Assembly (NCBI GenBank): GCA_037176725.1
Contig: JAZBRS010000049.1
Coordinates: forward strand, 11,488,001-11,552,000
DNA: 64,000 nt
Reading direction: 5' to 3'
Source of the DNA: Posidonia oceanica
Taxonomy: Eukaryota > Streptophyta > Magnoliopsida > Alismatales > Posidoniaceae
The position numbers were made by a program, and so were the translations under genes. This document shows positions 10,331 through 64,000 of the stretch, piece by piece; the stretch's first letter is position 1, and the number at the start of each line of letters is the position of its first letter. The notes under the pieces were generated by a model. It searched no databases, was not told the origin of the DNA, and saw nothing but the letters and a program-made list of their open reading frames with translations.

Positions 10331-10426
10331 AATAATATTTCCCAGTGGGGATGAATTCGAATTGAAGATCCCTATATTGGTGAAATGTCCTTGTAGATTC
10401 CACTGTAATGGTCGTCCGTCGGGAAA

Positions 10427-18617: not shown

Positions 18618-19227
18618 GCCACGTCCTCAAGTACCTTTCCCATTATTACCTACACTAGGAAATAAATGACTGGAAAGCAAATTGTACGAAAATAAAATGT
18701 GGGAATTAAAAGCAGGAAAGAAATTATTTACAAGATTAGGGGGACTGCTGTAAGGTTTGCCTCCCCAGCGGAGGTGATTCTCCATTTGGCATCAATCGAT
18801 GGCCCCGACCCTTTCTTGCTTCAAGGGGCAAGGCCGCAAGTTGCTGAAGATAGTAGTTAGATCACACAGAGAGAGAGCATCGATGACTTCTACTTCGGTG
18901 TCTTCTGAAGGAGCTCCAGACAAGTCGTTAGCTGAGATGTCTGGAGGTGGGGGGATCCTTGGAGAATCAGGAAGAACGTCTGACACTTGGAGAGCGGTGT
19001 TGGGGACTTCTTCTGAGCATGGGGAAGAGGCCAGTGATGCCTCCTTTGGATCTTCTGAGATGTCGATAACCTCTTTTGGGACTGACTTATCTTTGAACTA
19101 TAGCCCGACTGATATGAAATGGCTTGATAGTGACTAGATCAGTGGCTTAGCGAGATCCTTTGATAAGTGCCATGGATGTCCCAGTCCTGTGCCATTGCGC
19201 TTTCTGGTGTTTCGAGCACGTCTTTCA
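18618..19227 (-). other. Linker region of element 2
   Basis: It corresponds to the variable Pro/Ser/Glu linker before reverse transcriptase in element 1. An AT-rich stretch at about 18640-18745 resembles the AT-rich, splice-site-bounded stretch at 9600-9700. No independent gene is seen. Confidence 0.5.
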
Positions 19228-20119: not shown

Positions 20120-20489
20120 GACTCTCTCTACGTTGGGTGGAAGCGACGCAACTTGATTTGAAATTCATCCTGTTCTGGTGATAGGTGCTTGTTGCACTTG
20201 ATAGTACCCTCCCTTGGCTGGTGCAGGTCTGATCAATGATGTTGGCCTCCTTAATAAAGACTTCTCCTGATTCGCAGGTTGATTATGGCATAGCAACAAT
20301 GAGCTTGACTGGGCAGGCACTGCATGGTGTGTCTGAGCATATCCTCGTGTAGCATTGCTTTCTGTCATATCCTGGAACCCTTAAAAGTTTGGAGTCTCAT
20401 CGTCCCAATGGTCGTAATCGAGCCATCTGCCTAGCAGCCATCCATTGTTTGATCCCGGCGGTGGCCCTTCAGTGTATGGTTCAAGTAAG

Positions 20490-21078
20490 GTGGGCATCTA
20501 TATCATCCTCAAGTCAGTTTTGTGATCGGCTCGGATTGTGATCACTTCCTTTTGATATTTGAATTTGAGAAGTTGGTGTGTCGGGGAAGCGACAACATGA
20601 ACCTCTACCAACCAGGACCTCCCTAAGATTAATGGTTCGGCCAGATCCTGCTCCATCACAATGATGGTGGTAGTACTAGTGAGGGGACCTATAGTAACCT
20701 CCAGTTGAACAGTCCTAAGTGCTTCTCTTTGGATGTTGTCATAGGCTGCACAAGTGAAGCGATGTTTGGAAATCTATTCTTCTCCAATGTCCAGGTAGTC
20801 GAGAGTAGTCAGGAACAGACACTTAGACTGGCCCTAGTGTCAATAAGTACTCTGGGAAGTGGGTAGTCATTGTTGTCTACAGAGATGATCAGTGGGCGTA
20901 GGCGCTCTTCTGGAGCAGGCAGTTCTGTATCCTTGAAGACCATATTCCTCCATTCGAAGCCCACGATGACTTCCCTAGCTAGCACAAATGGGTCCATATT
21001 GTCAGAGTTGTCAGATCCTTGCTGCTGTTCACCTACAGGGAGGAAATTGAAGTGATTAAGAAGAACGAGGTCATTCAT
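20490..21078 (-). pseudogene. First aspartic protease, element 2
   Basis: LPRVLIDTRASLSVCS near 20830 is the active-site region; the usual D-T-G reads D-T-R. A stop at 20809-20811 is followed in frame by the second half (AEPLILGRSWLVEV, near 20630). It is homologous to the first protease of element 1. The Gly-to-Arg change in the catalytic triplet would abolish activity. Confidence 0.75.
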
Positions 21079-21261
21079 GGATTTTCCCTAATCCTGTAGG
21101 CCTTCCCATATGCCATCTACCTGGACTTCCCATTCTATAGATCCTTCATCAGACCAAGCTTCTGGAGTAGGCATCGAGGATGCATTAGGATTACTGTCTT
21201 CTTCAACTGATGGGCTTTGGTATGGATCTGCTTGTATATGCTGAATAGTCACCAGCTCAGA

Positions 21262-43667: not shown

Positions 43668-45305
43668 TTGTCTTTTACTTTTGCATGCATTGTCATTCAT
43701 TCTTCCAGTTTTGTTTGTTTTCATGTTTTCTCGCATTATCAAAAACTATAAAAATTATAAAATTCGTCAAAATCTAAAAACATGCATTTTTCATTTCCTG
43801 CATGTACATATCATTTCCTACATCCTGTAGAAGACAAAAACATAAAAAAAAAATCAAAGAATCAAAAACAACAAAAACATGCTTTCCTTTCCGCTGGTTT
43901 TCCCTTTTTAAGTTTTCTTAAAACAGAAAAGTCATAAAAAATACAAAACACATGGAAAAACCCAAAAACATGCTTGTTCCCTTTCTAAAATACAAAAAAC
44001 CTAGAAAAAATTTTATAATAAGAAAACCTGGTTTTGGACAACAAGCAGCATCGAGAGGATGTCAAGCTTCGACAATCTCAGGCAGGTCTCACCCAAGAAG
44101 CACCATTTCTTGCATGTGGCTACAAAGTGAGACTGAGAGCAGAACAAAGCATCTCGCTGAGCTCAAAACTCCCAAAGCGAGATCCACCTTATCAAGAGAG
44201 TCCACTAGACATGGAAAGGACCAAAGCAGAGTAGAACATGGCCAGAGGCTGCCTGTACACACAGCAGAGGCTAAGGGTGTGCGCTGACCAGCCGAACTCT
44301 TAACGCCTCATCTAGGACCGCTACCCCAAGAGGGCGAAGACATGCATATCCAAAAGAATAGAGATCATGTGAGAAAAAATATGATAACAAGATACACATG
44401 CTGGGTACAAAAAAAAAATGAAGACAGAAGTTGAAGAAAGAAGACGCCCATGAGAGGAGTGATTCAGACAAGCATCGAAGCCCCCTCAACTTTCAATTCC
44501 AAGCACCACATTGCCAACTGCACGGGAAACCTTATTAGGAGGACCTGGCCCCACCCTTCGAGCACAGTAGCACGCTCCAATCCCTTGTGCAGACAACAAC
44601 TCTACCTCCTTGGTAGGCTAGAAGCAACTCCAGTCACTCAAGAGGGAAAAAAAAGAAAACTCAACCCGAGAGTGTCAAAAGCGGTAGTCGGTCCTCGAGG
44701 ATTTAAGACGGAGGCAATGAAGCTAGATCCAATGCTTCTGCTACCCACATGTAGTCAAAGGTTATACTCTGCGAAGCTGAGGCCTCATCTCGAACTAAGA
44801 GTGAGAATGAGAGCCACCAACCACAACTTAACATGGAGTTGCTCGAGGATCGAGAATCCCCTGAGTCAGAAAATGCAGAAGCACCCTCTCGACATCAGCT
44901 GCTTTGAATCCTAAGCCACCAAAAACATAATTGCATCATAATCTATCTTCCCCTTCTTCTGTTTTCGAAAATTGGAGTCAAGGACGAGCACCTTTTACCT
45001 GACCTCGTTCAGAGGCTCCGTGCTTTTTCAAAAGTTTTGGCCCCCCATCGCGTTGGGTAGGTCCATGATGACCGGCATGACCATCATTTGTCACTCCGTG
45101 GTGTTACATTGCATGCCCACTCTGAGACCATTGCACACCCACCATGATGGGTCCCCATTTTTTTCGAGCATCATCCTACATTTTCCCTGTGTCCCGGGCA
45201 GGTAGCCCTAACTACCCGTTTGGCAAACGCGTCAGTTTTGCCTATATCTGTCGCTTTTTCGATGCCAAGGGCGCTTCGGCTATTCCCTGTATCATTCCTG
45301 ATACC
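43668..45305 (+). other. Noncoding 3' interior of element A
   Basis: It is homologous in order to 53001-55290 of element B: A-rich DNA, the block with TCTCAGGCAGGTCTCACC (44079), GAGCTCAAAACTCCCAAAG, AAGAGGGCGAAGACATGCATATCC (44328), and one two-hairpin unit at 45193-45242. It is shorter than in element B because the hairpin arrays are largely missing. No coding sequence is recognised. Confidence 0.7.
45193..45242 (+). repeat. Single two-hairpin unit, element A
   Basis: Stem 1 is GGTAG-ccctaa-CTACC (45201-45216). Stem 2 is GGCAAAC-gcgtca-GTTTTGCC (45222-45242). The stem bases differ from those in element B while pairing is kept. Confidence 0.7.
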
Positions 45306-45864: not shown

Positions 45865-46085
45865 TGTAGACACCCCATTCTGATAGCCTGGAAGATGCTG
45901 GATTCTCCTGCAACTTGCTTGGACTCTGGGATGGCTATCTTTTTTTTCAAACTGACCCATTTCTACCCAAAACCAAATCTAAAACCCCACCTAAACCCCA
46001 AAACCTCAACCTAAGCCTTTTGCACCTTTTCAACCCTTTTTAAGCCAAGGCCCAATCCCATTTCAGCTTTTGACCTCCTAGGCGT

Positions 46086-46172
46086 GTTGGACGCTGGCAC
46101 GGGCAGCGTCCAATGTTGGACGTGCTCTGTGCTAGCGTACAACGTTGGACGCGCTCTACACCAGCGTCCAAC
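46086..46172. repeat. First hairpin cassette, 5' LTR of element B
   Basis: Inverted repeats around GTTGGACGCTGG...AGCGTCCAA and GTTGGACGCGCTC...CCAGCGTCCAAC, with a third between them (GTTGGACGTGC...GCGTACAAC). It starts 933 bp before the next cassette, about four times the 230-bp spacing of the others. Confidence 0.8.
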
Positions 46173-47018
46173 GGCCTGGGGGTTGCAACGGCTGCTCCGC
46201 CACCTTTGGCTCACTTCCCTCCTCTCCGCCACCCATACACAGTTACTACCCATCTCACTCACCACTCTAAGCCACTCACTAGCTGCCAAGGCCGAGTAAC
46301 TACCCTATCAGGTCGTCTACTCCTCCCCAGCGCCTCTCCCGCTCACTCCACCTCTCACTGCCACAGCCGCTGGATTCTCTGCCACCAGCGACTTCGGCGA
46401 CCACCTCCTGCCAGTCCACGCCCTCGCCTGCCATGCCTCGTGGCCTCCCACTCACACCCAAGCCTGCCACGCCCTTGCCGTTGCCTACAAACAACTCTGC
46501 AACCTCGGCCTTCACCCATGAACCCAACAAAACCACACAAAATAGCCACCTTCTCGCCATTGCACAGCACACCACAGCCCTCCTAGTGAGAATTGAGCGA
46601 CACCAGAGCAAAGAGCAAACTCCCATGACCCCTCTCGAGCATCCAGCAACCTCTCCCGAGCCACCAGCACTCCAAGCAAGCTCGTCGGAGTAGCCTCGCC
46701 GCCACCTTTCGCAACGCCAGCTGCAAGCGCAAACACGCTTTCTGGGCCGCAACCAGGTAGGTTCTCACTTCCCTTAGCTAGTGCACGCACGTAGTAGCAT
46801 GATAGGATAGTTAGCACACATGCATGCCACCTTGGTTGGTCGGAATTGGCCCGGCCTCCAGCCGTGAGGTGGAGGAGATGGGTGGCCCGATCTGGCCATC
46901 CATTTCCAGCTCTGAATGCATGGGCGTGTTCGTCTCGTCCCCCTATTGCTTCCTGGATCCTGAGGTTCCAGTTTTGGATCGATCTTAGCATCGATTGGGC
47001 TGGAGGTTTGCTCGGCCT

Positions 47019-48459
47019 GTTGGACGCAACATCTGGTGCGTCCAACGTTGGACCAGCCTTGAGGCAGCATCCAACGACCTGCAGTTCTATTTGCTTGCCT
47101 TCCCCTTTTATTTTGCTTCTGTGATGCTTTAGCTTGCATGCTTAGCTGCTGTTTTGTTCTAGCATGTTCTCTTCCTGTTTCTAGATGCCATGCTAGGTTT
47201 GGATTCATGTTTCTTGCCCCTGTTTAATCTGCTGTTCTTGGGTGTTGGACGCTGGAATGTAAGCGTCCAACGTTGGCCGCTGTGCTTTCAGCGTCCAACG
47301 CCCCTGCATGCCTGCTCTTACTTTACTGCTTTGAAGTTATGCTTATTTTATGATATGCATTCAATCCATGTTGCATGCCTCCAGTTCACCTATTTGCAGT
47401 AGCTTACATGCATGCTTAATGGCTTTATTCTGAGCTTAATTCTTTTTGCAACTTGATCTGCTATTTGTCTGTGTTGGCCGTGCAAGTCCCAGCGTCCAAC
47501 GTTGGATGCTGGTGCATCCCGCGCACAACGCTCTTGCTTGCTTACCTGAGTTGCAATGTTTGATTGATGCCTCCTATTTGCTTGGTTGTTTCATTTATGC
47601 ATGCATGTGCCTTGTCCTAGCATACTTGCTGTCATTTAGATGAATGCTTTAGGGTTTGCCATGCTCATCTCCTGTTGCTGGTTGCTGTGCTGTCTTCCTG
47701 CGTTGGCCGCTGGAGGCACCGGCGTCCTACGTTGGACGCTGGATGCAGCCGCGTCTAATGCACAGAGACCACAGCACCCAACTTCAAGCTTGCATCTGGC
47801 ATTTTGTGTTTGCATCTTAGCAGTCTGAGCATGCTAGTATGTCCTGCATGTCCTTGGCTTTTCCTCTACGAATCTCAAGCTTTGTTATCGATTTTTTGCA
47901 TGCATTTTCTTTCTGCAGTTTCCATCTCTCTGCGTTGGCCGCTTGCTGTCTCAGCGGCTAAGGTAGGACGCTGGCCATTCCAGCGTCCAACGCCGAGAAC
48001 CCACTGTAGCTTGTTCTTTTCTGATTTGATCCTCGTTTCTTTTGCTTCTGATCGCTTTTAGTGCATGTTCAGCATCACTTATCTGCAGTAACTTAGATGC
48101 ATGCTTTGGTGTTGGATTTGTCGCTTTGCATATGGCCTTTGTGATGTTTTTTGCCTGCAGGGTGTTGGCTGCTGAGTGCTCTAGCGACCAACGTTGGACG
48201 CTAGGTACTCTACGTCCAACACTCTGCTCTGTTTTAGCTTGGTTTCTGTCTGTGCCTTGCTTCCAAATTGCTTTCTGGCTGCTTTCTTGCCTATCTTGCA
48301 AGTCCTGCATATCTGCCATTGCCATGTTGCACTTGCATAGCATGCATGCATTTAGAAAGCATTGATTTCTCAAGAATTGCATGCTGTTTGCCTCCAGTAG
48401 GCGTTGGACGCCAGCATTGCCAATGTCCAACATTGGACGCAGTTATTGCTGCGTCCAAC
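47019..48459. repeat. Seven double-hairpin cassettes, about 230-bp spacing, 5' LTR
   Basis: Cassettes of about 57 bp start at 47019, 47244, 47473, 47702, 47934, 48164 and 48403. Each is two back-to-back inverted repeats of the type GTTGGACGCTGG-n-CCAGCGTCCAAC. The GTCCAACGTTGGAC junction between them is itself palindromic. The spacers are T/G-rich, differ from one another and contain GCATGC words. The pattern looks like an old tandem array in which only the hairpins stayed similar. Confidence 0.85.
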
Positions 48460-49412
48460 GCTTGCAGTTGGCTGAACTTGATTTTGAGACGCCGATTTGG
48501 TTTCATTCACCGTTTTCCGCGTTTTATTGCTCCTGATGCATGCTATAACACCCGTGCACGCTGCCTGCCCCCCTATTTTGATTTTGCACCTCGCCTTGCA
48601 CGCTTTCTTGTAGTTTTCACCTCGGACTCGCTTTCGCTCTCTCTTTTGCATATCGCTTGCCTGCATCGTTTTCCGCGCTTTTACATCGTTTCCTGTGCTT
48701 GCACCGTTTTCTGCACCGCTTTTGCATCACTTTTCGCACCATTTTCATACTGTTTGCACCATTTTTTGCGCCCGCTTTGGTTTATCCCTTGCATGTCGCT
48801 TGCATCGCATGGTCTTTGTCGCAGCCTTGTTTTATCGCCTGCATTTGCATTAGGGCAATGATGCTTACTGCCTAGGAGTTCTCACGAACTGGGGTTTGTC
48901 CAGTTTGGAACACTAGCAGCATTGCTAAGCACATAGATAGCACATTTATTTCCCATGCATAGCAATCAGACATTCATTGCATTTAGGCATTAGGTAAGCA
49001 TCTTCCTGCATTAGCGAGCGAGATTGCCTAAGAAAGACCGATTCTCGGACGTGTCGGGGGTGCCTAACACCTTCCCCGTGCGTAACAGGAGTCCTTGCCA
49101 TTTCTCTTGGCCTGCAATGACCTTTCCTTCATCCTAGGCACGAGTCATAGCATAGCATTGCATTGCATCGCATCTCTTTGCATCCGGTTTTGCATGTCTT
49201 TTCATGAATTTCCTCGGTTTTCCTTGTCTCCCAACTTAATAGACATGGTGGCGACTCCGATTTGTCTTATCATTTCTTTTTCTTCTTTTTGCCAGTGTTT
49301 CCGAGTCAAGTTTCTTCCCTCGGATCCCGCCGCATATAGTGAGCCTATTTTGATCAGTGCGCGCGTGCTTTGGCATCGTGCATGGACGATCAGAAATTCA
49401 GGATTACTACAG

Positions 49413-50485: not shown

Positions 50486-52980
50486 TTGTGTCCCTGCCTT
50501 CAGTCGCAGACCTGTTTGCTCTCCCTCGCCGTCCGCTATGGCTCAGCATACCAGCGAGCCCTCTTCCTCTTTGGCGTCACGGGAGATACTGACTTCGGTC
50601 TCTCCTTCCCCTGCTTTGGCGTCCCTCGTCTCCTCTCCACTTCTGGACAGGAGACTTCCCAGCCCCTTTATCTGGATCAAGGGTCGATCCTAGCCAACCT
50701 GGAGCTTATCACCAAGACTGCTGCGGTGACCGCTACTCGGGCTCCAGGAGCGTCGCCTTCTGTTCCATCCCAAGGCCTTCCTGTCTCGGGAATCCAACCT
50801 TCTGCGGCTGCCTCTTGCGTAGGATCCACTCCTATTGCTTTCTTGGTTTCTGCGTCCCCTTTGGCGGACACCTCTTTGCATCCCGGTCCGTCGGTCGATG
50901 CTTTCTCTGCCTCGCAAGCACAGCGTTTATTGGCTAAGGCCGATAGGCTGCGAAGCATGGCTCTCGCACTCGACCCGACTGTGGCCTGCTCTTCCCGTTC
51001 AACCCCTGAGGTTCCAGTGTCGCCTTCTGTAGCCCTGCAGGCGCACTACACTGCACTTCCACCCTTTCCATCGCCCCGGCTCCTCACAGCCACGGCAATG
51101 GGGGCGCATTATTGGCCTCCTACACCTGCACAGCACTTTGCACAGCATGCAACTCCTTCCTTTGGTGGCCAGTCTTCTGGATTGGCAAGAGCATAGCACC
51201 CCTTAGGCCCGTTGCCTGAAACCGTGCTAGTGCAACAGCTGCTGCTCCCCCACATTGCACCTTACACTGCACAGCATATTATCTATCAATCTTCTTTGCA
51301 TCAGGTTCAGACTCCTGCATACATAGCACCGCACTTTGCACCCTCGCACGGGTATGTTGGCCCTCATGCTACGACACCAGGTGGCGTGATGGTGGATCTG
51401 GAGGAGTGCTCTCGCGCGACCTGCACAGCATACGTGGTCCCTACCTCTGTTGCACAACCATCGCCAGCAGCAGCCTTAGACGCCCTCCTCACTAGGTTGG
51501 GCGATCTAGAGAGAGCACTTCGTCAAGTGCAAGGCTAGGACCGCCAGCCCTACCAATTTCGCGACCTCTGTCTCTTTCCAGAGGCCGCACTCCCTTCGAA
51601 GTTCTGCATCCCGGACTTCGATAAATATAATGTAGAGGCTGCCCCATCTCGCATCTGAAGGCATACTGTGGGGACCTTGCTTAGCTTCAGGCTGATGAAA
51701 GGCTCCTTATCCGCTTGTTCCAGAAGAGTTTGACCGGCCCCGCACTTAGGTGGTTTACGTCCCTTGACATGGCTACGGTTCAGAATTGGACTGGTCTTTT
51801 TCAGGCTTTCCTTCAACAATATGCTTTCAACCTCGACTTGATCCCCAAGAGGGAGGATCTCGTCGCCATCCGGTAGAGGCCCCAAGAGCCATTCGGGGAG
51901 TATGTCAGTCGCTGGCACTCCACAGCCGCCTAGGTTAAGGATAGACCCTTCGAGGAGGATTCTATCGAGATGATCGTCAAAGGAGCGCTGCCAGCGACTA
52001 GGACTCTGCTTTGCATCCAGCACATCACTAGTTTTGCATCACTGATTAGGGCTAGCGCTCGCGTGGAAAGCTCACTATGGAGTGGGCATTTCCCCACACT
52101 TTCTGCATTGGCTAGGCAGGCCAACAACACCAGCAATCGCCGCAGCAGTAACAGCAGCAACAACTCAGCTTCCGACTGCCCCGAGCAGCACGCTGTGGCA
52201 TGCGCTGATCCTCTTGAAGTGCCTGCCTTTGCAGAAAGTTAGCCGGACCCTTTTCCGCTAGTGCACGCACCTATTTATGCACCCACTGCACACACTGCCA
52301 CCGTTGAGCTAGTGCATCACATCACACCAGCTCAGCAAGGACAACAGTCTAAGTAGAGACGAGTCCGCCGCGCTAAGAGTGACTTCACTCCACTTGGTGA
52401 ACCGCTAAGCGCCGTCTTTCCCCAGGTTATGTCACTTCTGAGGCTCCCGGAAACTCGCCCTCCACCAAATCCTCTTCCGAGGTGGTACAATGCTAGCAAG
52501 CATTGCGATTACCATCGAGCCACGGGGCATTTGACAGATAATTGCCTCACTCTCCGAGATGTCGTTCAGGACTTGATTGACAACGGGACCCTCGTCGTCA
52601 GTCCGCAGGAGGCTGCTCACACACCTGCAGTTGCACTCGCACACCCTAGCGTAGCCGGCCCTTCCTCTTCTGAGCCTGCGGGCTTCAAGGATGCCGGAAT
52701 CTCCGGGGCTTACCCCAATCTTCTTTGAATCCAGCTCTGTGCCGGTGGGTCCTTCCGATCCCATCGGCGCAATCCCCTCTTCCTATCTCTCCCTGTTTGC
52801 CCAAGGGATGCTCGAAAGCGCAACGGCAAAATCGACAGCAAGCCTAGTCGCAACACCATCCAGGTTAGCTTCTCCTCCAGCATCAATAGCCCCAGTGTTC
52901 CTTGCACTGCCAATAGTGGATCTCGCTGACAGCATCAGCAGCATAGGGGCAGACCTAGCACCTCCCTCCCGAGGTCGCTG
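50486..52980 (+). pseudogene. Gag remnant of element B
   Basis: A plausible ATG is at 50538 (MAQHTSEPSSS), with a frame change near 50690. An Ala/Pro/Ser-rich N-terminal part follows to 51538, then the gag core at about 51650-52080 (HLKAYCGDLA; LTGPALRWFTSL; FLQQYAFNLDLIP; FGEYVSRWHST) and the zinc knuckle-like module at about 52495-52545 (HCDYHRATGHLTDNC). In-frame TAGs lie at 51194-51196, 51536-51538, 51682-51684, 51874-51876 and 51931-51933, and a frameshift near 51655. The core matches the gag of plant Gypsy elements. Nothing resembling pol follows. Confidence 0.8.
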
Positions 52981-52983
52981 ATA

Positions 52984-53000
52984 GGTAAGTCCCTCTTACC
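52984..53000 (+). other. Splice-donor-like hairpin after gag, element B
   Basis: TAG|GTAAGTCCC with a perfect 6-bp stem GGTAAG...CTTACC, at the same place as in element A. The bases just outside the stem differ between the two elements. Confidence 0.5.
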
Positions 53001-53131
53001 TCTCTTTTCTTTCCTACACTGTCTTTTCTTTTCATTTTGTTTTGTTTTTGTGTTTTCCTGCCATGTCAGAAAATCATAAAAACAGCAAAAACCCTAAAAA
53101 CTTGCATTTTTTCCTGCATGCATTCATCATT

Positions 53132-53326
53132 CGGGCTGATACCCCTAACTATTAGGCGATAGGTCCGTTAACCTATCATCACCGGGCTGACAGTCCTAAC
53201 TGCTCGGCAATAAGTCCGTCAACTTATCATTTGGGCTGGCAGCCCTAACTGCTCGGCGATAAGTCCGTCAACTTATCATTCGGGCTGATATCCCTAACTA
53301 TTCGGCGATAAGTCCGTCAACTTATC
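53132..53326 (+). repeat. Two-hairpin repeat array, cluster 1 (four units)
   Basis: Four units of 48-50 nt. Stem 2 reads GATAGGT/ACCTATC (53158-53177), ATAAGT/ACTTAT (53210-53227), GATAAGT/ACTTATC (53258-53277) and GATAAGT/ACTTATC (53307-53326), with loops CCGTTA or CCGTCA. Stem 1 is best in unit 3: GGCAG-ccctaa-CTGCT (53238-53253). No spacers separate the units. Confidence 0.85.
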
Positions 53327-54766
53327 ACCCACACATATCAATCACTTTGCATGCATATCAACCATTTTGCACATATCTGTCATCATGCATTGTCATTTAT
53401 CGCATGTACGTATCATTTCTTGCATGCTGTAAAGCATAAAGCCAAAAAATTAAGAAAATAAAAAAAAAACAGCAAAAATATTTTCTTCGCCTTCTTGCTG
53501 GTTTTCCCTTTTATGTTTTCCTAAACAAAAATCATAAAAATACAAAACCAATGCTAAAACCAAAAACATGTTTGTCCTTTCCCCTGCTAAAATATACAAA
53601 ACCCACAAACATTTGTATAATCAGAAACCTACTTTGGACAAACAAGCAGCGCCTCGAGGATGTCAAGCAGTGACGATCTCAGGCAGGTCTCACCCGAGCG
53701 GCACCATCTCTTGCATGTGGCTACAGAGTGAGACTAGAGCAGAACAGAGCGTCTCGCAGAGCTCAAAGCTCCCAAAGTGAGATCCACCTTAACCAGAGAG
53801 TCCACCAGAAATGGAGAAGACCAAAGCAGAGCAGAGCGTAGCCAGAGGCTGTCGACACATTGCAGAGGCTGAGGGTGTACGTCAATCAGCCGAACTCTCA
53901 ATGCCTCACCTGGGACCGCTACCCCAAGAGGGCGAAGACATGCATATCCAAATGAATAGAGGTCATGTGAGCTAAAGAAATGATAACATGATATGCATGC
54001 TGAGCATAAAAGAACAATGCAGAAAGAAGTTGAAGAAAGAAGGCGCTCATGAGAGGAGTGACTCAGACGAGTGTCGAAGCCCCCTTAGCTGTCAGCTCCA
54101 AGCGCCACATTGGCAACTGCACGGGATGCACTATCAGGAGGACCTGACCCCACCCTCCGAGCATAGCAGCACGCTCAAATCTCCTCTACAGACAACTCTA
54201 CTCCCTTGGCAGGCTAGATGCAACTCCAGTCACTCATGAGGGGAAAAGGAAGATCTATGCCGTGAGCGTTAATAGCGGTAGTCGGTCCCCAAAGAATTGA
54301 GACGGAGGCTAAGAAGCTGCATCCAACGCTTCTGCTACCCTATAGCCAAAGGCTATACTCTGCAAAGCTGAGGCCTCATCCTGATCCAAGAGTGAGAAAG
54401 AGAGCCACCGACCACAACTCGGCATGGTGTCGCTCGAGAATTGAGTCTCCTAAGTTAGGAATTGTAGAAGCATCCTCATGGCACAATTGCTTTGAGCCCA
54501 AAGCCACCAAAACATGCATGTTGTAATATATCTTTATCTTCCCTTCTCCCTGTTTTCGAAAACCGGAGCCAAGGACGAGCACTTTTGCTTGCCTCGCTCA
54601 GAGGCTCCGTGCTTTTCAAATTTTGCCACTCACCGCGTGGGTAGGTCCATGATGACCGGCATGTACCTTGTTTGTCACCTCGTGACGCCACGAAGCGTGC
54701 CCGTGCTGAGACCATTGCACGCCTATCACGATGGGTTCCTATTTCCTTTCTGCATCATTCTGCATC
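53327..54766 (+). other. Noncoding interior of element B between hairpin clusters
   Basis: An A-rich stretch (53430-53620) is followed by sequence conserved in element A, including TCTCAGGCAGGTCTCACCC (53678) and AAGAGGGCGAAGACATGCATATCC (53925). No coding sequence. Confidence 0.7.
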
Positions 54767-55622
54767 CGGGCTGGTAGCCCCAACTGCTCGGCGATGGGTC
54801 CATCAACCTATCATTTTATCATGTTATCATTTCTGCATCCGGGCTGGCAGCCCTAATTGCTCGGTGATGGGTCCGTCAACCTATCATTTTATCGTGCTAT
54901 CATTTCTGCATCCGGGCTGGCAGCCCTAACTGCTCGGCGATAGGTCTGTTAACCTATCACTATGCATTCCTCTGCATCGGGCTGGTACGCCTAATTGCTC
55001 GGTTGACGCTTGTTAAAATGTCATCCCACATATCCGCATTGCATTCGGGCTGATATCCCCAACTATTCGGCGATAAGTCCGTTAACTTGTCACCCTGCAT
55101 TTGCATTATTCCATTACATCCCCCACCGTCATTACACTTCGCACGGTGAGCCCTTACATCCATTTTACTACATTCGGGCTGGTAGGCCTAACTACTCGGC
55201 TGACAAACCCGTTAGTGTTGTCTCCACCTTGCATTTTGATGCCATGGGTGCTTCGGCTGTCCCCTGGTATCGTTCACCGATACCAGGGGCATCTTTATTT
55301 AGCTGCCCCGTGGTATCCCATTTCCATCTGCATTTGGGCTGACATCCCCAACTGTTACGGGAGCATCTACGGACCTCTGCCACACCTTCAGGTATGGTAT
55401 TCGCATTGCATTCGTGGTTACAAGCTATCCCACTTGTAATCACCCCTCTTGCCTGACAGACTCGCTGGCCTGTCACCATCATCGGGCTGATAGCCCTAAC
55501 TATCCGGTGATGAGTCTGTTAACTCCTTACGGGTTGATAGCCCCAACTATCCGGTGATGAGTCCGTTAACTCCTCGCAGGCTGATAGCCCTAACTATCCG
55601 GCGATAGGTCCGTTAACCTATC
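54767..55622 (+). repeat. Two-hairpin repeat array, cluster 2 (about ten units) with other hairpins
   Basis: Units start at about 54767, 54840, 54913, 54978, 55046, 55175, 55335 (partial), 55483, 55531 and 55578. Stem 2 variants: GATGGGT/ACCTATC (54793-54812, 54866-54885), GATAGGT/ACCTATC (54939-54958, 55603-55622), GATAAGT/ACTTGTC (55072-55091), GACAA/TTGTC (55202-55222). Stem 1 is GATAG-ccctaa-CTATC at 55489-55504 and 55583-55598, and GATAG-ccccaa-CTATC at 55536-55551. Between units there is a 12-bp perfect hairpin at 55261-55289. Confidence 0.85.
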
Positions 55623-57172
55623 ACCCATTTCGTCTAAGTGTAATAGCATGTTGTTGCATGGCATTAGCATTTCATCATCACACGGACATCGCGCAACTAG
55701 GATCGTTTTCCCAGTTTTGTGTGCCCGACGTTCCATTGTTTGTACACTACATTTCACAGCATTCGCATTGCATAGCATCATGTAGCTTCTTTGTATGCCT
55801 TGTAGAATCAGTCCTAGTACTGCATCTCATCATTACACGGACATCGCGCGCTTAGGATCCGAACCCCAGGCTCACGTATTGCCTAAGGCAGCATCCTCGT
55901 CGCCCGCATGCTTCTTTTTATAGCATTGCCGGCTTGGGATGATGCTCGCAGTAGTACGCGGCCCAGGATTGCTTTCTCAGTTTCGCATGTCCGGCGTTCC
56001 GCTGCATATCCTGCATCCCACTGCATAACATTGCATAACATTGCACCCTTATTGCGTTGCCACTCCTTTGTGGTCCTTACACCAACTTCCGCATTCTGCT
56101 TTCCCAGGCATTTCGTATCCGCCATTGCATGCACATCCCCTGCTTTACTTTCAGCATCTTTACTTTCAGCTTTACTCCATGCGCTTGCATTGCCATTCAT
56201 CTACAGCCGAGCTTTGCGAATGGCACCCCCGTCGCCTGGCCTACTTGCATTGGCTAGCGACAGCATTGCATTGCATTTCCACTTTTCCGTGTGCATGCAC
56301 GATCCCGCTTTCCCCCAGAGGAGTGCAGTGCAGTAAGCGTTAGCGTAAGTATACCATTTGCATTAGCATAGCATTCTAGTGTTCGCATTCATCTGCATTT
56401 GCATTCACCTTCCTGCATTGCTTAGGACATCCTTCGCATCGCATTGTCCTTCTTGCCTCTTCGCCTGCTTGCTGCCTCGATCGGAGGCAAGCATTTTCTC
56501 CTTCTCGCGGCCTCGCGAGCTCCTGTTTGTTTCACTTGTCCCGAACGGACAAGGACCCTTGGTCTCCCCCGGACTAGCAACCAACCTGCCTGAGCGGCAA
56601 GCGCGTTAGTCCTTCTGGAGCCGCTTTTGCACAAGTTTTAACGAGCAGCCAACTTGTCGCGTTGCATCGTAGAGACTTCTGCTTCTCCTCACTTCAGCAT
56701 GCATCACACTGCACTGCCCTAGCATTCCCTGTTTGGTGGCTACATTCGCAGCACCGACACCCACATAGCACTAGCACTCACAGCATTAGCGCTCGCACTC
56801 ACAAGCATAGCAAGCACTCACAACAAGCATTAGCACCCATAACATAGCAAGCACCCACAACATCAGCATCAGCATTAGCACCAGCACTCACCATGCATCA
56901 GCATAGCATCTCCTCATGCACAGCACCCGCACGCGCACTAGTTCATATTGGTTCAACATCAACATTCGCATCGCACACCAGTTCTGCATTAGCATCTGCA
57001 CTAGCTTCTGCATTAGTATGCATTGCATCGCATCATTGTGGCATCGAGTCATGATTTCCGGTGCATACGCCGGATAAGTGACTCACGCCAACAGCAATTC
57101 GCACTCCTGCCGGCGTCAGGTAGGGCGTCTTGTCTACCCCGAGCAGCGGTCTCACTACACTTGACCTCGCTC
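55623..57172 (+). other. Low-complexity 3' interior of element B
   Basis: GCATT- and CATTGC-rich DNA. A short direct repeat with CACGGACATCGCGC lies at about 55680 and 55840, and an irregular array of AGCATTAGCACCC-like words at 56740-57030. I see no gene; frames such as 55883-56336 are low-complexity. Confidence 0.65.
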
Positions 57173-57181
57173 AGGGAGGGG
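57173..57181 (+). other. Polypurine tract of element B
   Basis: AGGGAGGGG followed by CATC and the start of the 3' LTR at 57186. It is short, but in the right position for plus-strand priming. Confidence 0.6.
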
Positions 57182-57185
57182 CATC

Positions 57186-60100
57186 TGTAGACACCCCATT
57201 CTGAGAGCCTAGAAGATGGTGGATTCTCCTACAACTTGCTTGGACTCTGAGATGGCTATCTTTTTTTTCAAACTGACCCATTTCTACCCAAAACCAAACC
57301 TAAAATCCCACCTAAACCCCAAAACCTCAACCTAAGCCTTTTGCACCTTTTCAACCCTTTTTAAGCCAAGGCCCAAGCCCATTTCAGCCTTCGGCCTCCT
57401 GGGCGTGTTGGACGTTGGCATGGGCAGCGTCCAATGTTGGGCGTGCTCTGTGCTAGCGTACAATGTTGGACGCACTCTGTACCAGCGTCCAACGGCCTGG
57501 GAGTTGCAGCGGCTGCTCCGCCACCTTTGGCTCACCTCCCGTCCCCTTCGCCACCCGTACACACTTACTACCCATCTCACTCACCACTCCAAGCCACCCA
57601 CTAGCTGCCAAGGCTGAGTAACTACCCTGCCAGGTCGTCTACTCCTCCCCAGCACCTCTCCCGCTCACTCCACCTCTCACTGCCACCGCCGCTGGATTCT
57701 CTGCCACCAGCGACTTCGGCGACCACCTCCTGCCAGCCCATGCCCTCGCCTGCCATGCCTCGTGCCCTCCCACTCACACCCAAGCCTGCCACGCCCCTGC
57801 CATTGCCTGCAAACACCTCTGAAAACCTCGGCCTTCACCCATGAACCCAACAAAACCACACAAAACAGCCACCTTCTCACCATTGCACAGCACAGCACAG
57901 CCCTCCCAGTGAGAATTGAGCGACACCAGAGCAAAGAGCAAACTCCCACGACCCCTCTCGAGCATCCAGCAACCTCTCCCGAGCCCCCAGCACGCCAAGC
58001 AAGCTCGCTGGAGTAGCCTCGCCGCCACCTTTTGCAACGTCGGCCGCAAGCGCAAACACGCCTTCTGGGCCGCAACTCACTTCCCTTAGCTAGTGCACGC
58101 ACGTAGTAGCATGATAGGATAGTTAGCACACATGCACGCCACCTTGGTTGGTCGGAATTGGCCCGGCCTCGGGCCAGGAGGTGGAGGAGATGGGTGGCCC
58201 GATCTGGCCATCCATTTGCAGCTCCGAATGCATGGGCATGTTCGTCTCGTCCCCCTCTTGCTTCCTGGATCCCTAGGTTCCAGTTTTGGATCGATCTTAG
58301 CATCGATTGTGCCAGAGGTTTGCTCGGCCTATTGGACGCACCATCTGGTGCGTCCAACGTTGGACCTGCCCTAAGGCAGCGTCCAACGACCTGCAGTTCT
58401 ATTTGCTTGCCTTCCCCTTTTATTTTGCTTCTGTGATGCTTTAGCTTGCATGCTTAGCTGCTGTTTTGTTCTAGCATGTACTCTTCCTGTTTCTAGATGC
58501 CATGCTAGGTTTGGATTCATGTTTCTTGCCCTTGTTTAGTCTGCGGTTCTAGGGTGTTGGACGCTGGAATGTAAGCGTCCAATGTTGGCCGCTGTGCTTT
58601 TAGCGTCCAACGCCCCTGCATGCCTGCTCTTGCTTTACTGCTTTGAAGTTATGCTTATTTTATGATATGCGTTCAATCCATGTTGCATGCCTCCAGTTCA
58701 CCTATTTGCAGTAGCTTACATGCATGCTTAATGGCTTTATTCTGAGCTTAATTCTTTTTGCAACTTGATCTGCTATCTGTCTGTGTTGGCCGCGCAGGTC
58801 CCAGCGTCCAACGTTGGACGCTGGTGCATCCCGCGCACAATGCTCCTGCTTGCTTACCTGAGTTGCAATGTTTGATTGATGCCTCCTATTTGCTTGGTTG
58901 TTTCATATATGCATGCATGTGCCTTGTCCTAGCATACTTGCTGTCATTTAGATGAATGCTTTAGGGTTTGCCATGCTCATCTCCTGTTGCTGGTTGTTGT
59001 GCTGTCTTCCTGCATTGGCCACTGGAGGCACCGGCGTCCTACGTTGGACGCTGGATGCAGCCGCATCTAACGCATAGAGACCACAGCACCCAACTTCAAG
59101 CTTGCATCTGGCATTTTGTGTTTGCATCTTAGCTGTCTGAGCATGCTAGTATGTCCTGCATGTCCTTGGCTTTTCCTCTGTGAATCTCAAGCTTTGTTAT
59201 TGATTTTTTGCATGCATTTTCTTTCTACAGTTTCCATCTCTCTACGTTGGTCGCTTGCTGTCCCAGCAGCTAACGTAGGACGTTGGCCATTCCAGCGTCC
59301 AACGCCGAGAACCCACTGCAGCTTGTTCTTTTCTGATTTGATCCTCGTTTCTTTTGCTTCTGATTGCTTTTAGTGCATGTTCAGCATCACTTATCTGCAG
59401 TAGCTTAGATGCATGCTTTGGCATTGGATTTGTCGCTTTGCATATGGCCCTTGTGATGTTTTCTGCCTGTAGGGTGTTGGCCGCTGAGCGCTCCAGCGTC
59501 CAACGTTGGACGCTAGGTACTCTGTGTCCAACACTTTGCTTTGTTTTAGCTTGGTTTCTGTTTGTGCCTTGCTTCCAAATTGCTTTCTGGCTGCTTTCTT
59601 GCCTTTCTTGCATGTCCTGCATATCTGCCATTGCCATGTCGCACTTGCATAGCATGCATGCATTTAGAAAGCATTGATTTCTCAAGAATTGCATGCTGTT
59701 TGCCTCTAGTAGGCATTGGACGCCATCATTGCCAGTGTCCAACATTGGACGCAGTTATTGCTGCGTCCAACGCTTGCAGTTGGTTGAACTTGATTTTGAA
59801 ATGCCGATTTGGTTTCATTCGCCGTTTTCCGCGTTTTATTGCTCCTGATGCATGCTATAACACTCGTGCACGCTGCCTACCCCTTGTTTTGATTTTGCAC
59901 ATTGGCTTGCACGCTTTCCCGTAGTTTTCGCCTCGGACTTGCTTTCACTCTCTCTTTTGCATATCACTCGCTTGCATCGTTTTTCGCACTTTTACATCTT
60001 TTTTTGTGCTTGCACCGTTTTCTGCACCACTTTTGCATCATTTTCCACACCATTTCCATACTGTTTGCACCGTTTTCTGCGCCCGCTTTGGTTTATCCCT

Positions 60101-60732
60101 TGCATGTCGCTTGCATCGCATGGTCTTCGTCGCAGCCTTGTTTTATCGCCTGCATTTGCATGAGGGCAATGATGCTTACTGCTTAGGAGTTCTCACGAAC
60201 CAGGGTTGCCCAGTTCGGAACACTAGCAGTGCTGCTGAGCACATAGATAGCACGTTTATTTCCCATGCATTGCAATCAGACATTCATTGCATTTAAGCAT
60301 TAGGTAAGCATCTTCCTGCATTAGCGAGCGAGATTGCATAAGAAAGACCGATTCTCAAACGTGTCGGGGATGCCTAACACCTTCCCCATGCATAACAGGA
60401 GTCCTTGCCCTTTATCTTGGCCCGCAATGACCTTTCCTTCATCCTAGGCATGAGTCATAGCATAGCATTGCATTGCATCGCATCTCTTTGCATCCTCTTT
60501 GCATCCGGTTTTGCATGTCTTTTCATGCATTTCCCGCGATTTTCATTGTCTCCCAACTTAATAGACATGGTGGTGACTTCGATTTGTCTTATCATTTCTT
60601 TTCTTCTTTTTGCCAGCGTTTCCGAGTCAAGTTTCTTCCCTCGGATCCCGCCGCATATAGTGAGCCTATTTTAATCGGTGCACACGAGCTTTGGCATCGT
60701 GCATGGATGATCAGAAATTCAGGATTACAATA
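57186..60732 (+). mobile_element. 3' LTR of element B
   Basis: Same length and layout as the 5' LTR. Cassettes start at 57407, 58331, 58556, 58785, 59014, 59246, 59476 and 59715, with the same spacings as in the 5' LTR to within 10 bases. The conserved GTGCCTAACACCTTCCCC block is near 60370. It ends ATTACAATA, two substitutions from the 5' LTR end. Confidence 0.9.
58331..59771. repeat. Seven double-hairpin cassettes in the 3' LTR
   Basis: Counterpart of 47019-48459. Several cassettes differ from their 5' LTR partner by single transitions, some of which weaken pairing (for example GTTGGCC to ATTGGCC at 59014). Confidence 0.85.
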
Positions 60733-62470
60733 GCCACCAACTCCAGAGCATGCCTCTGCCACCGTCCTCCTTGCCAGTGCCCTCGCCAAACAAAACCGGC
60801 GAACCCAACCTTCTCACACTTCACCACACACATTTGCTAGAGCTTCCACTGACTCTAGAGCATCCCAGAGTGATCCTTGTGTGAGAGAGAACTCCTCTGA
60901 GCATTCAGTGCCCAGTTCCACTCCCCTCGTTCACTGTCTTCCAAGCTCACCACCGCTTGGACTCGCCGGCGCCGAAGGAGACAACTGCCCACATGCATGT
61001 AACTCCTTCCTCCTTGCTTGCTTCTTGTTCCCCGTTGGAGGGGAACCGTTTTTGCATGTTTTCCTGCACTTTTGGGTATCTAATTCCCATGCCTTGGAGT
61101 CGTCTTCCTTGACTCTAGTGAGTCACAGAAGCATCGGGGAGGCTCAGCCGCCCCAATTTGGCTTGCTCTTTAGCTCCGTCGGACTGCCACCAACATTCCC
61201 AGCTATTCAGTGGCATTCCAGGTGCCTCCACACGTGCTCCCCACCTCCCTCGTGGCCAGATATCGTCGTGGATGGCCAACACCGGCGAGCCTAGCGGTTG
61301 GGGGCCTCCGGTTGATCATTTTTACTTCTGTTTCTTCCCTTGCCTTCGTCTCAACTCCCCCAAGCCTTCGGTGAGCCGTGTGTAGGCCTGAGACTTCCCC
61401 GTTCATCTCGGCGGACGCCGAAAAGCTCAGCCACTGGTGATGAAACCCATGAGGTGGGGAGAGAGTTCCAGAAGGCCATTTCTACTTTTGAATGCATGTG
61501 TGTGCTCTTGGGAACGCCGTCGTGCTTCCTAGATGTTTAACTGTATTTGTAGCCTGGCCGACGGCGTGGGATTTGGCCGCAAAGTCCAGCAGTTGGTTTG
61601 CCAGGTCAGGTGCCACTACATGTGGCGACTGGACTGCAAATTAGGCTGCCCTCGAGCTGGATTTTGTTCCGATGTATCTCTTCGCTTGGGCACCCATATT
61701 GCTTCCTGTTTGCATGAATATGTTCTCTGATATGCCATATTGCTTTGTGGATGTTTACTTCAATTTTTCAATATCGTTTGCATGGCCGAAATGGGTGCCA
61801 AAGGTCGCCGTCTGAGGCTGTTGGGTTGCTTCTGGTAGTCCTCCGGTCGACTTTGGACCGCCACTGCCCGTGGTCCAAGCGTCCATTTTGTGCAATGTTA
61901 GTTCGATTGTGATCTCTGATATGCCCTCTGTCATTTTGTATGTTTAGTTACAAATCTTATGAATGTTTGCATGGTTTATTTAGTCGGCAAAGGTCGCTGT
62001 CTGGCCTACCTGCAGGAGTCTTGGCTACTTGTAGGAGCGACGACCAAAGCTGTCGCCGTTCTGTAGAGCGACTGTGCAGACGCCGCCAGTGCTGGCGACT
62101 AGCATGGTCGCCCAGGTGATCGGTGACTCTGTTTAGAGTCCAGGCAGTGGCCTAAACCCATGGCCTGTCACCTTGCCACTCATCTACTTAGTTTGTTTTG
62201 TCTCAAGCATGTTTCTCTGATTTGCCTGTTGTTGTCTTATGTCGATTTGGCTTTAATTAAGCAAGTTGGTTTCATTTTGCTAAGCTTTACATGGTTTATA
62301 ATTGCATCTTGCATACCGTCCTCGGGCGAACATAAACCGGCAGTTATTTGCCTAGATTTGCCACACAAGAGTGGAAAAGCCAAGAAAGACCGATTCCTCG
62401 GATGTGTCGGGGGTGCCTAACACCTTCCCCGCATGTAACAGGAGTCCTTACCCTTTCTCTGGATTGCATC
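60733..62470 (+). mobile_element. Outer LTR, 3' piece
   Basis: Continuation of the LTR begun at 45306. It has GTCGCC/GGCGAC hairpins (61605-61632; 62052-62097) and the conserved GTGTCGGGGGTGCCTAACACCTTCCCC region, in two parts near 62400 and 62415, then stops short of an LTR end where the inverted repeat turns. GCCAC at its first five bases is the right target duplication of element B. Confidence 0.7.
60978..62470 (+). repeat. Inverted repeat, left arm (at least 1,493 bp)
   Basis: It pairs base for base with 62508-64000. Differences seen in a 240-base sample near the centre are four transitions. Both arms have the same length to the window edge, so no indels have accumulated overall. Confidence 0.9.
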
Positions 62471-62507
62471 CCTAAGCTAGTTGTCCAAATGAATGTGACA
62501 TAAGGTC
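62471..62507. other. Centre of the inverted repeat (37 nt)
   Basis: CCTAAGCTAGTTGTCC...ATAAGGTC, unpaired sequence between the arms, unlike any LTR sequence seen elsewhere in the window. Confidence 0.85.
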
Positions 62508-64000
62508 GATGCAGTCCAGAGAAAGGGTAAGGACTCCTGTTACGTGTGGGGAAGGTGTTAGGCACCCCCGACATGCCTGAGGAATCGGTCTTTCTTGGCT
62601 TTTCCGCTTTTGTGTGGCAAATGTAGGCAAATAACTGCCGGTTTATGTTCGCCCGAGGGCGGTATGCAAGATGCAATTATAAACCATGTAAAGCTTAGCA
62701 AAATGAAACCAACTTGCTTAATTAAAGCCAAATCGACATAAGACAACAACAGGCAAATCAGAGAAACATGCTTGAGACAAAACAAACTAAGTAGATGAGT
62801 GGCAAGGTGACAGGCCATGGGTTTAGGCCACTGCCTGGACTCTGAACAGAGTCACCGATCACCTGGGCGACCATGCTAGTCACCAGCACTGGCGGCGTCT
62901 GCACAGTCGCTCTACAGAACGGTGACAGCTTTGGTCGTCGCTCCTACAAGTAGCCAAGACTCCTGCAGGCAGGCCAGACAGCGACCTTTGCCGACTAAAT
63001 AAACCATGCAAACATTCATAAGATTTGTAACTAAACATACAAAATGACAGAGGGCATATCAGAGATCACAATCGAACTAACATTGCACAAAATGGACGCT
63101 TGGACCACGGGTGGTGGCGGTCCAAAGTCGGCCGGAGGACTGCTGGAAGCAACCCAACAGCCCCAGACGACGACCTTTGGCGCCCATTTCGGCCATGCAA
63201 ATGATATTGAAAAATCGAAGTAAACATCTACATAGCAACATGGCATATCAGAGAACATATTCATGCAAACAGGAAGCAATATGGGTGCCCAGGCGAAGAG
63301 ATACATCGGAGCAAAGTCCAGCTCAAGGGCAGCCTGATTTGCAGTCCAGTCGCCACATGTAGTGGTGCCTGACCTGGCAAACCAACTGTCGGACTTTGCA
63401 GCCAAATCCCGTGCCGTCGGCGAGGCTACAAATACAATTAAACATCTGGGAAGCACGACGGTGTTCCTAGGAGCACACACATGCATTCAAAAGTAGAAAT
63501 GGCATTCTAGAACTCTCTCCCCACCTCATCGGTTTCATCACCGACGGTCGAGCTTTTCGGCATCCGTCGAGACAAACGGGGAAGTCTCAGGCCTACACAC
63601 GGCTCACCGGAGGCTTGGGGGAGTTGAGACGAAGGCAAGGGAAGAAACAGAAGTAAAAATGATCAACCGGAGGCCCCCAACCGCTAGGCTCACCGGCGTT
63701 GGCCATCCATGACGATGTCCGGCCACGAGGGAGGTGGGGGGCACGTGTGGAGGCACCTGGAACGTCGTTGAATAGTTGGGAACGTTGGTGACAGTCCGGC
63801 AGAGCTAAAGAGCGAGCCAAATTGGGACAGCCAAGCCTCCCCGATGCTTCCACGACTCACCAGAGTCGAGGAAGATGACTCCAAGGCATTGGAATTAGAT
63901 ACCCAAAAGCACGGGAAAGCATGCAAAAACGGTTCCCCTCCAACGAGGAACAAGAAGCAAGCAAGGAAGAAGGAGTTACCTGCGTGTAGGCGGTTGTCTC
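62508..64000 (-). repeat. Inverted repeat, right arm (runs off the window)
   Basis: Reverse-complement copy of the outer LTR 3' piece, including the conserved GTGCCTAACACC block on the - strand near 62560. The right limit is not in the window. Matching frames on opposite strands (62160-62420 and 62558-62818) simply mirror each other. Confidence 0.9.

What the first reader, a model, noticed from the sequence alone, without database searches (positions are those of the whole stretch)
54767..55622. Repeat unit of about 48 nt folding as two hairpins with constant loops and covarying stems
Seen: about fourteen units in element B (also 53132-53326) and one in element A (45193-45242). Hairpin 1 has stem forms GGTAG/CTACC, GATAG/CTATC, GGCAG/CTGCT around an almost fixed loop CCCTAA. 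Hairpin 2 has GATAAGT/ACTTATC, GATAGGT/ACCTATC, GATGGGT/ACCTATC, GACAA/TTGTC, GGCAAAC/GTTTTGCC around CCGTCA or CCGTTA. Both sides of the stem change together while loops stay put, the classic mark of a selected RNA fold. Inference: a reiterated RNA element in the genomic RNA of a gag-only retroelement, perhaps a Gag-binding or packaging signal. I know of no description of it.
Basis: partly seen in the sequence, partly recalled or inferred. Interest (0 to 1): 0.9.

Follow-up and report, generated by a model that had tools for sequence, protein, structure and literature searches.

The report
Repeated RNA hairpins in a retrotransposon
A jumping element, apparently of a plant, that seems to keep only its coat-protein gene carries many copies of a small two-hairpin motif whose paired bases change together, which suggests that its RNA folds for a purpose and offers a testable role for a kind of repeat whose function is unknown.

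Summary
In detail: 15 units, 14 in element B and 1 in element A, all on the + strand. In the 2.96-Gb genome the first half of the unit has 177,541 matches against 37 for a reversed control. In 163 held-out units (of 192) from 20 loci, found by sequence only, six stem pairs stay paired far beyond within-locus shuffles (0 of 500 each). A home-made tree null ranks two hairpin-1 pairs and one hairpin-2 pair 1-3 of 1225, but only one passes over all pairs (E 0.005, 0.32, 2.6). In four inner hairpin-2 pairs G.U outnumbers A.C 66:11, pointing to the sense RNA; hairpin 1 shows no clear asymmetry (12:7) and folds weakly. Units share the gag strand in 13 of 13 loci with a gag hit. The element looks like a gag-only relative of Tat/Ogre retrotransposons, whose 3' tandem repeats are known but unexplained. 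Best reading: a reiterated cis-acting RNA element, read by Gag or a host RNA-binding protein. The Gag role is inference; no binding was tested.

The parts
54765..55625 (+). main array: ten double-hairpin units at 54765, 54838, 54911, 54976, 55044, 55173, 55333, 55481, 55528, 55575, spaced 47-160 nt
53130..53329 (+). upstream array: four units, spacing 49-51 nt
45193..45244 (+). single unit of element A, at the place that corresponds to 55173-55224 of element B
53239..53252 (+). example hairpin 1 (core stem GCAG/CTGC, loop CCCTAA) in unit 53230
   Evidence: the wider stem GCTG/CGGC is not supported by covariation
53258..53277 (+). example hairpin 2 (7-bp stem GATAAGT/ACTTATC, loop CCGTCA) in unit 53230
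55261..55289 (+). 12-bp perfect hairpin in the spacer after unit 55173; element A has a shorter hairpin at the same place with an A-U for G-C change
51685..52725 (+). gag of element B, interrupted by stops (Retrotrans_gag match in 51685-51873, E 6.3e-5, 23.6 bits, just under the curated cut-off of 24.1)
53625..54640 (+). about 1 kb non-coding block between the two unit arrays; 76-91% identical hits in 13 of 20 other loci, over about 1 kb in 11 of them and partial in 2
45866..49412 (+). 5' LTR of element B (start and end approximate), followed by a PBS-like TGGCGACTCCGTTGGGGA (assignment to the Tat/Ogre PBS is recalled)
57186..60733 (+). 3' LTR of element B, 91-94% identical to the 5' LTR over the ungapped pieces listed

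Best explanation
The unit is a cis-acting RNA element, repeated 14 times in element B and found 3 to 21 times per 10-kb locus elsewhere, in the 3' untranslated part of the genomic RNA of a gag-only (non-autonomous) relative of Tat/Ogre LTR retrotransposons. Shown: repeated units, maintained pairing in two short hairpins on held-out copies, G.U in preference to A.C in the inner pairs of hairpin 2, same strand as gag. Inferred: the sense transcript folds hairpin 2 (and, less surely, hairpin 1) with six-base loops held out; several copies act together as a multivalent landing site for a loop-reading protein. The likeliest reader is the element's own Gag, which carries a CX2HX4HX4C zinc-knuckle-like motif, so that the RNA is picked out and packaged into particles whose enzymes must come from pol-bearing elements.
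For: Held-out units (163 of 192 hits, 20 loci, sequence-only profile): 10-23 A-U 93, G-C 63, G.U 5, A.C 2; 11-22 U-A 103, C-G 48, U.G 7, C.A 5; 32-45 A-U 84, G-C 44, G.U 33, A.C 0. Within-locus shuffles never reach the observed pairing for six pairs, 0 of 500 each, while the alternative GGGCT/AGCCC stem and the wider hairpin-1 stem show no excess. Tree null: ranks 1, 2, 3 of 1225 are 10-23, 11-22, 32-45; in the window's 15 units the total is 221 against 46.9 (sd 23.2), 0 of 300. Strand: four inner hairpin-2 pairs G.U 66, A.C 11; 17 of 20 loci lean to G.U, 0 to A.C; 34 against 2 at 33-44 in 100 listed sites. Elsewhere in the unit, changes that would make A.C are not rarer than those that would make G.U (61 to 52 on internal branches). 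Gag strand 13 of 13.
Against: Hairpin 1 shows no clear strand asymmetry (12:7; 23:34 in pairwise copy comparisons that also include the poorly paired 13-20) and reaches mean pair probability 0.5 in only 7 of 15 units alone and 2 of 15 with 40-nt flanks. At both ends of hairpin 2 the asymmetry reverses (A.C 20 to G.U 2 at 29-48; C.A 14 to U.G 4 at 35-42); over all seven hairpin-2 pairs it is 80 to 48. Independent events are few: only 10-23 passes E<0.05 over all pairs. Units are not clearly better conserved than spacers between copies. Folding energy is as low on the minus strand, and one stretch (54966-55230) is no better than shuffles. No Gag, packaging or RNA data exist here.
Confidence: 0.4

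Rival explanations
1. A selected sense-strand RNA element read by a host factor: nuclear export or stability of the unspliced RNA (like the transport elements of mouse IAP and MusD), or translation control. Gag plays no part.
For: Same covariation and strand evidence as above. A review describes structured transport elements of LTR retrotransposons in mouse (passages of PMC12786077). The 3' position suits export or stability at least as well as packaging.
Against: No direct evidence; iterated short hairpins differ from the complex fold described there for MusD.
Confidence: 0.25
2. Symmetric DNA motif: the units are inverted-repeat protein-binding sites or chromatin signals in DNA, and pairing reflects two half-sites that must match.
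For: Hairpin 1 tolerates G.U hardly better than A.C; the same element's LTRs carry many palindromic GTTGGACGC/GCGTCCAAC motifs, like the LTR palindromes of Sireviruses (PMC2829016, passages).
Against: Half-sites that bind one protein should be constant, not covary; the LTR palindromes show recurrent C-T mismatches and one clear double change (47934), leaving aside rows that look spurious. The inner pairs of hairpin 2 have 66 G.U to 11 A.C, which DNA symmetry does not explain.
Confidence: 0.12
3. Not selected for folding: tandem copying, gene conversion and quasi-palindrome correction by template switching during reverse transcription keep arms complementary, and subfamily ancestry inflates covariation.
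For: Few independent events and a tree null that most pairs do not pass one by one; the two hairpin-1 pairs mostly change together (86 A-U/U-A and 41 G-C/C-G of 163); spacers about as conserved as units; such tandem repeats are thought to arise by abnormal strand transfer (PMC7004042, passages).
Against: Template correction yields perfect arms and treats G.T and A.C alike; at 32-45 G.U is frequent and A.C absent (33 and 0 of 161), with 11,280 G.U sites genome-wide. The mixed states of hairpin 1 also occur (13 G-C/U-A, 5 A-U/C-G of 163).
Confidence: 0.15
4. The hairpins mainly serve or suffer RNA silencing: transcripts fold into small dsRNA that feeds host small-RNA pathways.
For: Small RNAs map in excess to palindromic LTR clusters of maize Sireviruses (as reported in PMC10760457, passages).
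Against: Stems of 4-7 bp are too short for dicer products (general knowledge); an element gains nothing by keeping them paired.
Confidence: 0.08

Closest known systems
Tandem repeats in the 3' untranslated region of Tat-lineage (Ogre/Retand) LTR retrotransposons (Macas 2009, seen only as cited in PMC7004042; Vicient 2025, PMC11963269)
   Same: Position between the coding part and the 3' LTR, array form, family-specific sequence, non-autonomous carriers
   Different: In what I read they are described as sequence arrays of unknown origin and function, without base-pair covariation; here the units are short, partly dispersed among spacers, and covary
Gmr9/GmOgre minisatellites of soybean (PMC3305785)
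   Same: Interleaved repeat families between coding region and 3' LTR, tens of thousands of copies, function unknown
   Different: No folded unit reported in the abstract and discussion that I read
Sirevirus LTR palindromic repeated motifs (PMC2829016)
   Same: Multi-copy palindromes in non-coding regions of a plant LTR retrotransposon
   Different: Mostly in LTRs, with a constant CGG-CCG core, read as cis-regulatory DNA; more like this element's own LTR palindromes than like the 3' unit
Retroviral packaging signals and transport elements (psi, IAP RTE, MusD MTE)
   Same: Structured cis-acting elements in genomic RNA
   Different: Usually one compact region, psi near the 5' end (general knowledge); here many small copies at the 3' end; function untested
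LARD elements of Triticeae (recalled; no paper read)
   Same: Non-autonomous large element; a conserved RNA fold of the internal domain was proposed (recalled)
   Different: LARDs lack gag; no reiterated unit recalled

Membership tests
Tat-lineage (Ogre/Retand) LTR retrotransposon | two RNase H domains, the second between RH and INT, in the autonomous relative | tested here: met
   pol-bearing minus-strand element at 6.6-11.4 kb: RT, RT_RNaseH, RVT_3, then integrase H2C2; criterion from passages of PMC6317226. That this element is a relative or helper of element B is inferred
Tat-lineage (Ogre/Retand) LTR retrotransposon | element B's own gag related to gag of such elements | tested here: met
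   gag piece 52357-52725 matches 12801-12592 (E 3e-6) and 21606-21391 (E 1.2e-6), beside the pol-bearing elements; distant, 32% identity
Tat-lineage (Ogre/Retand) LTR retrotransposon | RT phylogeny | not testable with these tools
   no RT found in element B
gag-only (TR-GAG-like) non-autonomous element | LTRs and gag present, pol absent | tested here: met
   LTRs, gag, no pol domain in 10 ORFs of 52432-56340 (not every ORF was scanned), no hit of the window's pol proteins between 45.8 and 60.7 kb
Retand POL-3'LTR region | antisense ORF with TRP28 domain (PF04195), in 97% of clusters in PMC11963269 | tested here: not met
   no PF04195 in the 10 ORFs scanned, 4 of them antisense; an old, broken copy could have lost it
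Tat-lineage 3'UTR tandem repeat | tandem array between coding region and 3' LTR | tested here: met
   53126-53327 period 49, 54754-54959 period 73, 55483-55617 period 47
known Rfam RNA family | match at or above gathering score | tested here: not met
   0 matches in the window, none with E up to 1 in 52900-57200
retroviral-type packaging signal | needed for Gag binding and encapsidation | not testable with these tools
   needs binding and particle assays
selected RNA structure | covariation above a phylogenetic null | tested here: inconclusive
   strong in aggregate and for 10-23 (E 0.005), weaker one by one for the others; home-made null, not R-scape
Sirevirus-type LTR palindrome | palindromic motif within the LTR | tested here: not met
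   no unit found in the LTRs (one match at 46994-47046 with E 3 only); the LTRs hold another palindrome

The most novel reading that the evidence does not exclude
A multi-copy RNA code for selective packaging: a gag-only element family, with units by the hundred thousand in a 3-Gb genome, marks its RNA with many loop-presenting hairpin pairs that its own Gag reads, so that it fills its particles with itself and borrows enzymes from Tat elements. The unexplained 3' tandem repeats of the Tat lineage would then be packaging arrays.
Probability: 0.27. Interest if true: 0.8.

Novelty: new variant of a known kind. Interest (0 to 1): 0.6.

Why it matters
[quoted passage not shown] If here they are folded RNA under selection, there is a concrete, testable function, and a reason why such arrays persist in a non-autonomous element. 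The unit is so abundant (177,541 half-unit matches in one genome) that covariation can be tested with great power once the sequences are at hand.

Tried and rejected
Alternative stem GGGCT/AGCCC, preferred in many short folds: no double change in the window and no excess in held-out units, rejected as the conserved fold. Wider hairpin 1 with GCTG/CGGC and a bulge: pairs in most window units but does not covary in held-out units, unsupported. Known RNA families: none. tRNA: none. The unit in viral contigs: none for two exact patterns. A resemblance of hairpin 2 to a hammerhead core and of loop 1 to the plant telomere repeat was noted and dropped as chance, untested. On the window's 15 units the strand test is not decisive: G.U 28, A.C 2; the difference is reached in 63% of column shuffles, though no shuffle has so few A.C. 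So the strand claim rests on the genome units. Perfect stems of 8 bp or more are not enriched in 54701-57185 (1 against 0.53 in shuffles). Comparing units with spacers between copies gave no clear extra conservation. Target-site duplication of element B: none obvious by eye, not computed. The species was not identified; 'plant' is inferred from the Tat-like content and genome size.

Rows dropped: 29 of 192 genomic hits with fewer than 42 aligned positions (that script stopped with an error after its tables were printed). All 20 fetched loci lie in the first 4.4 Mb of contig C1 and were chosen for holding the pattern, so the held-out set is not a random genome sample. The comparisons use best local alignments of 45 pairs of ten copies, are not independent, and may align neighbouring units. 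The genome-wide A.C count for 32-45 did not complete, so that table is incomplete (A-U 35,183; G-C 3,428; G.U 11,280).

Full report
What is there. Fifteen copies of a unit of about 48 nt lie in the window, all on the + strand: one at 45193 in element A, four at 53130-53329 and ten at 54765-55625 in element B. Dinucleotide shuffles give 0.09 matches for hairpin 1 and none for hairpin 2; the hairpin-1 pattern has one further match, on the minus strand at 19696 with 3 mismatches. A model built from the 15 finds no further unit on either strand (next best E 0.49). Rfam has no match.

Setting. Element B has LTRs at about 45866-49412 and 57186-60733, a primer-site-like stretch after the 5' LTR (Tat/Ogre type by recall), and a broken gag (Retrotrans_gag, E 6.3e-5, just under the curated cut-off). 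Ten ORFs from 52432 to 56340 hold no pol or TRP28 domain (not every ORF was scanned), and the window's own pol proteins have no hit inside element B. Its gag is a distant relative of the gag beside pol-bearing minus-strand elements (32% identity); one of these has the order RT, RNase H, second RNase H, integrase, which PMC6317226 gives for Ogre and Retand (passages). The two unit arrays flank a non-coding block of about 1 kb.

Window covariation. My own null (FastTree tree, parsimony substitutions redistributed over columns, 300 simulations) gives 221 doubly changed sequence pairs against 46.9, sd 23.2, largest 124. Pairs 34-45, 10-23 and 11-22 of A1 rank 1, 2 and 4 of 1431. A version with one bulged base taken out of two units ranks them 1, 3 and 6, with 256 against 22.8; that version is fitted to the structure.

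Genome. The window lies in a 2.96-Gb assembly, a plant by inference. The 19-nt half unit with up to one mismatch has 89,341 + 88,200 matches; the reversed control 27 + 10. Twenty loci of 10 kb around the first listed places gave 192 units by a sequence-only profile, 3 to 21 per locus, 163 of them at least 42 positions long. Units lie on one strand in 19 of 20 loci. A gag hit occurs in 13 of 20 loci and lies on the strand of the units in all 13; a pol hit occurs in one locus, on the other strand (up to three hits per query were shown, one pol family served as query, and a 10-kb stretch need not reach pol). Half of the unit spacings (85 of 171) are 44-56 nt.

Held-out covariation. Columns here are profile positions; hairpin-2 pair 34-45 of A1 is 33-44 here. 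Pair tables: 10-23 A-U 93, G-C 63, G.U 5, A.C 2; 11-22 U-A 103, C-G 48, U.G 7, C.A 5; 32-45 A-U 84, G-C 44, G.U 33, A.C 0; 33-44 A-U 76, G-C 33, G.U 19, C-G 11, A.C 6 and others; 31-46 is paired in only 57%. Shuffling 3' letters among units of the same locus, which keeps element age, never reaches the observed pairing in 500 trials for 10-23, 11-22, 31-46, 32-45, 33-44, 34-43; the wider hairpin-1 stem and the alternative stem show no excess. With the tree null (200 simulations) the three top column pairs of 1225 are 10-23, 11-22 and 32-45, with E over all pairs of 0.005, 0.32 and 2.6; scaled to the 15 pairs of the tested structure these are about 6e-5, 0.004 and 0.03 (my arithmetic). The other pairs are not significant alone. 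The states are old: G-C and A-U at 10-23 occur in 16 and 20 of 20 loci, so events are fewer than units. The two hairpin-1 pairs mostly go together (86 A-U/U-A, 41 G-C/C-G), with 13 G-C/U-A and 5 A-U/C-G of 163.

Which strand, RNA or DNA. A sense RNA accepts G.U better than A.C; a DNA palindrome or neutral decay treats them alike. Four inner pairs of hairpin 2 (31-46 to 34-43): G.U 66, A.C 11; 17 of 20 loci lean to G.U and none to A.C. At 32-45 all internal-branch changes pass between Watson-Crick and G.U (10 to 0); over nine pairs, Watson-Crick to G.U and to A.C are 14.5 and 8.2 on internal branches and 30 and 25 on terminal ones, the latter as neutral decay would give. Pairwise comparisons of ten copies give single changes to G.U and A.C of 107 and 29 for hairpin 2 and 23 and 34 for hairpin 1, the last including the poorly paired 13-20. 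In 100 listed sites pair 33-44 is G.U 34 and A.C 2, expected 43 and 11. Mutation bias does not explain this: in the other unit columns, changes of the kind that make G.U (C>T, A>G) and A.C (G>A, T>C) are 51.5 and 61.1 on internal branches, and on terminal branches C>T alone is 73.5 (A>G below 8) against 102.5; the alternative-stem columns also lean to A.C (40 to 55). Against: A.C exceeds G.U at both ends of hairpin 2 (20 to 2 at 29-48 and 14 to 4 at 35-42), so that all seven pairs give 80 to 48; the first of these may be CpG decay, since position 28 is often C. Hairpin 1 shows no clear asymmetry (12 to 7).

Fold. Hairpin 2 has mean pair probability of at least 0.5 in 8 of 15 units alone and 10 of 15 with 40-nt flanks; hairpin 1 in 7 and 2 (the bulged hairpin 2 of 45193 and 55173 is undercounted there). 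Array energy is below shuffles on both strands (z -5.9 and -5.7 for 54758-55630), but 54966-55230 is not (z -0.5 and 0.2). Corresponding sites in elements A and B show compensatory differences: GGCAAAC/GTTTTGCC against GACAAAC/GTGTTGTC, and a nearby hairpin with TATCA/TGATA against TATCG/CGATA.

Reading. Hairpin 2 is very probably a maintained RNA hairpin of the sense transcript; hairpin 1 is a real pairing whose level (RNA or DNA) is open. Repetition, 3' position, loop bias and a zinc-knuckle-like Gag (CDYHRATGHLTDNC; naming recalled) make a multivalent protein landing site the best guess, Gag the first candidate, a host export or stability factor the second. Contrast: the LTR palindromes of the same element keep a fairly constant sequence with recurrent C-T mismatches and one clear double change, so covariation is not simply how any palindrome in this element behaves.

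Literature seen. PMC11963269 (abstract, structural section part 1 of 2, discussion), PMC3305785 (abstract, discussion), PMC6317226, PMC2829016, PMC10760457, PMC12786077 and PMC7004042 (passages). Six strings of the unit are in no held paper; searches for TR-GAG, for retrotransposon 3' repeats and for folded or palindromic repeats in retrotransposons listed none that by title and abstract describes this, but subscription papers are mostly not held.

Noticed in passing
45866-49412 and 57186-60733: LTRs of element B carry 22 and 19 candidate palindromic motifs like GTTGGACGC-N10-GCGTCCAAC, a few of them spurious, often two in tandem; perfect stems of 8 bp or more number 7 in each LTR against 0.63 and 0.50 in shuffles.
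   Followed up: partly
53625-54640: A non-coding block of about 1 kb with hits of 76-91% identity in 13 of 20 other loci (11 over about 1 kb, 2 partial) and pieces of 76-87% identity in element A, with hairpin arrays on both sides.
   Followed up: partly
55261-55289: Perfect 12-bp hairpin whose 3' arm runs into AGGGGCATC, the same letters that precede the 3' LTR near 57180.
   Followed up: partly
60978-64000: Inverted repeat with 1,493-nt arms, 94% complementary, 37 nt apart, reaching the window end.
   Followed up: no
39012-39631: Seven 91-bp tandem copies, several with a hairpin-like AAGTCC-N2-TA-ACTT that resembles hairpin 2; weak model hits only, E 4.7-8.7.
   Followed up: no
6596-11443 and 17967-22414, minus strand: Pol-bearing elements; the first has G-patch, RT, two RNase H domains and integrase, the second was seen only by similarity to it. 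Possible kind of enzyme donor for the gag-only family.
   Followed up: partly
819-1262 and 4810-5202: Tandem arrays of 30 and 25 bp on the 3' side of the minus-strand pol-bearing element, without the unit described here.
   Followed up: no
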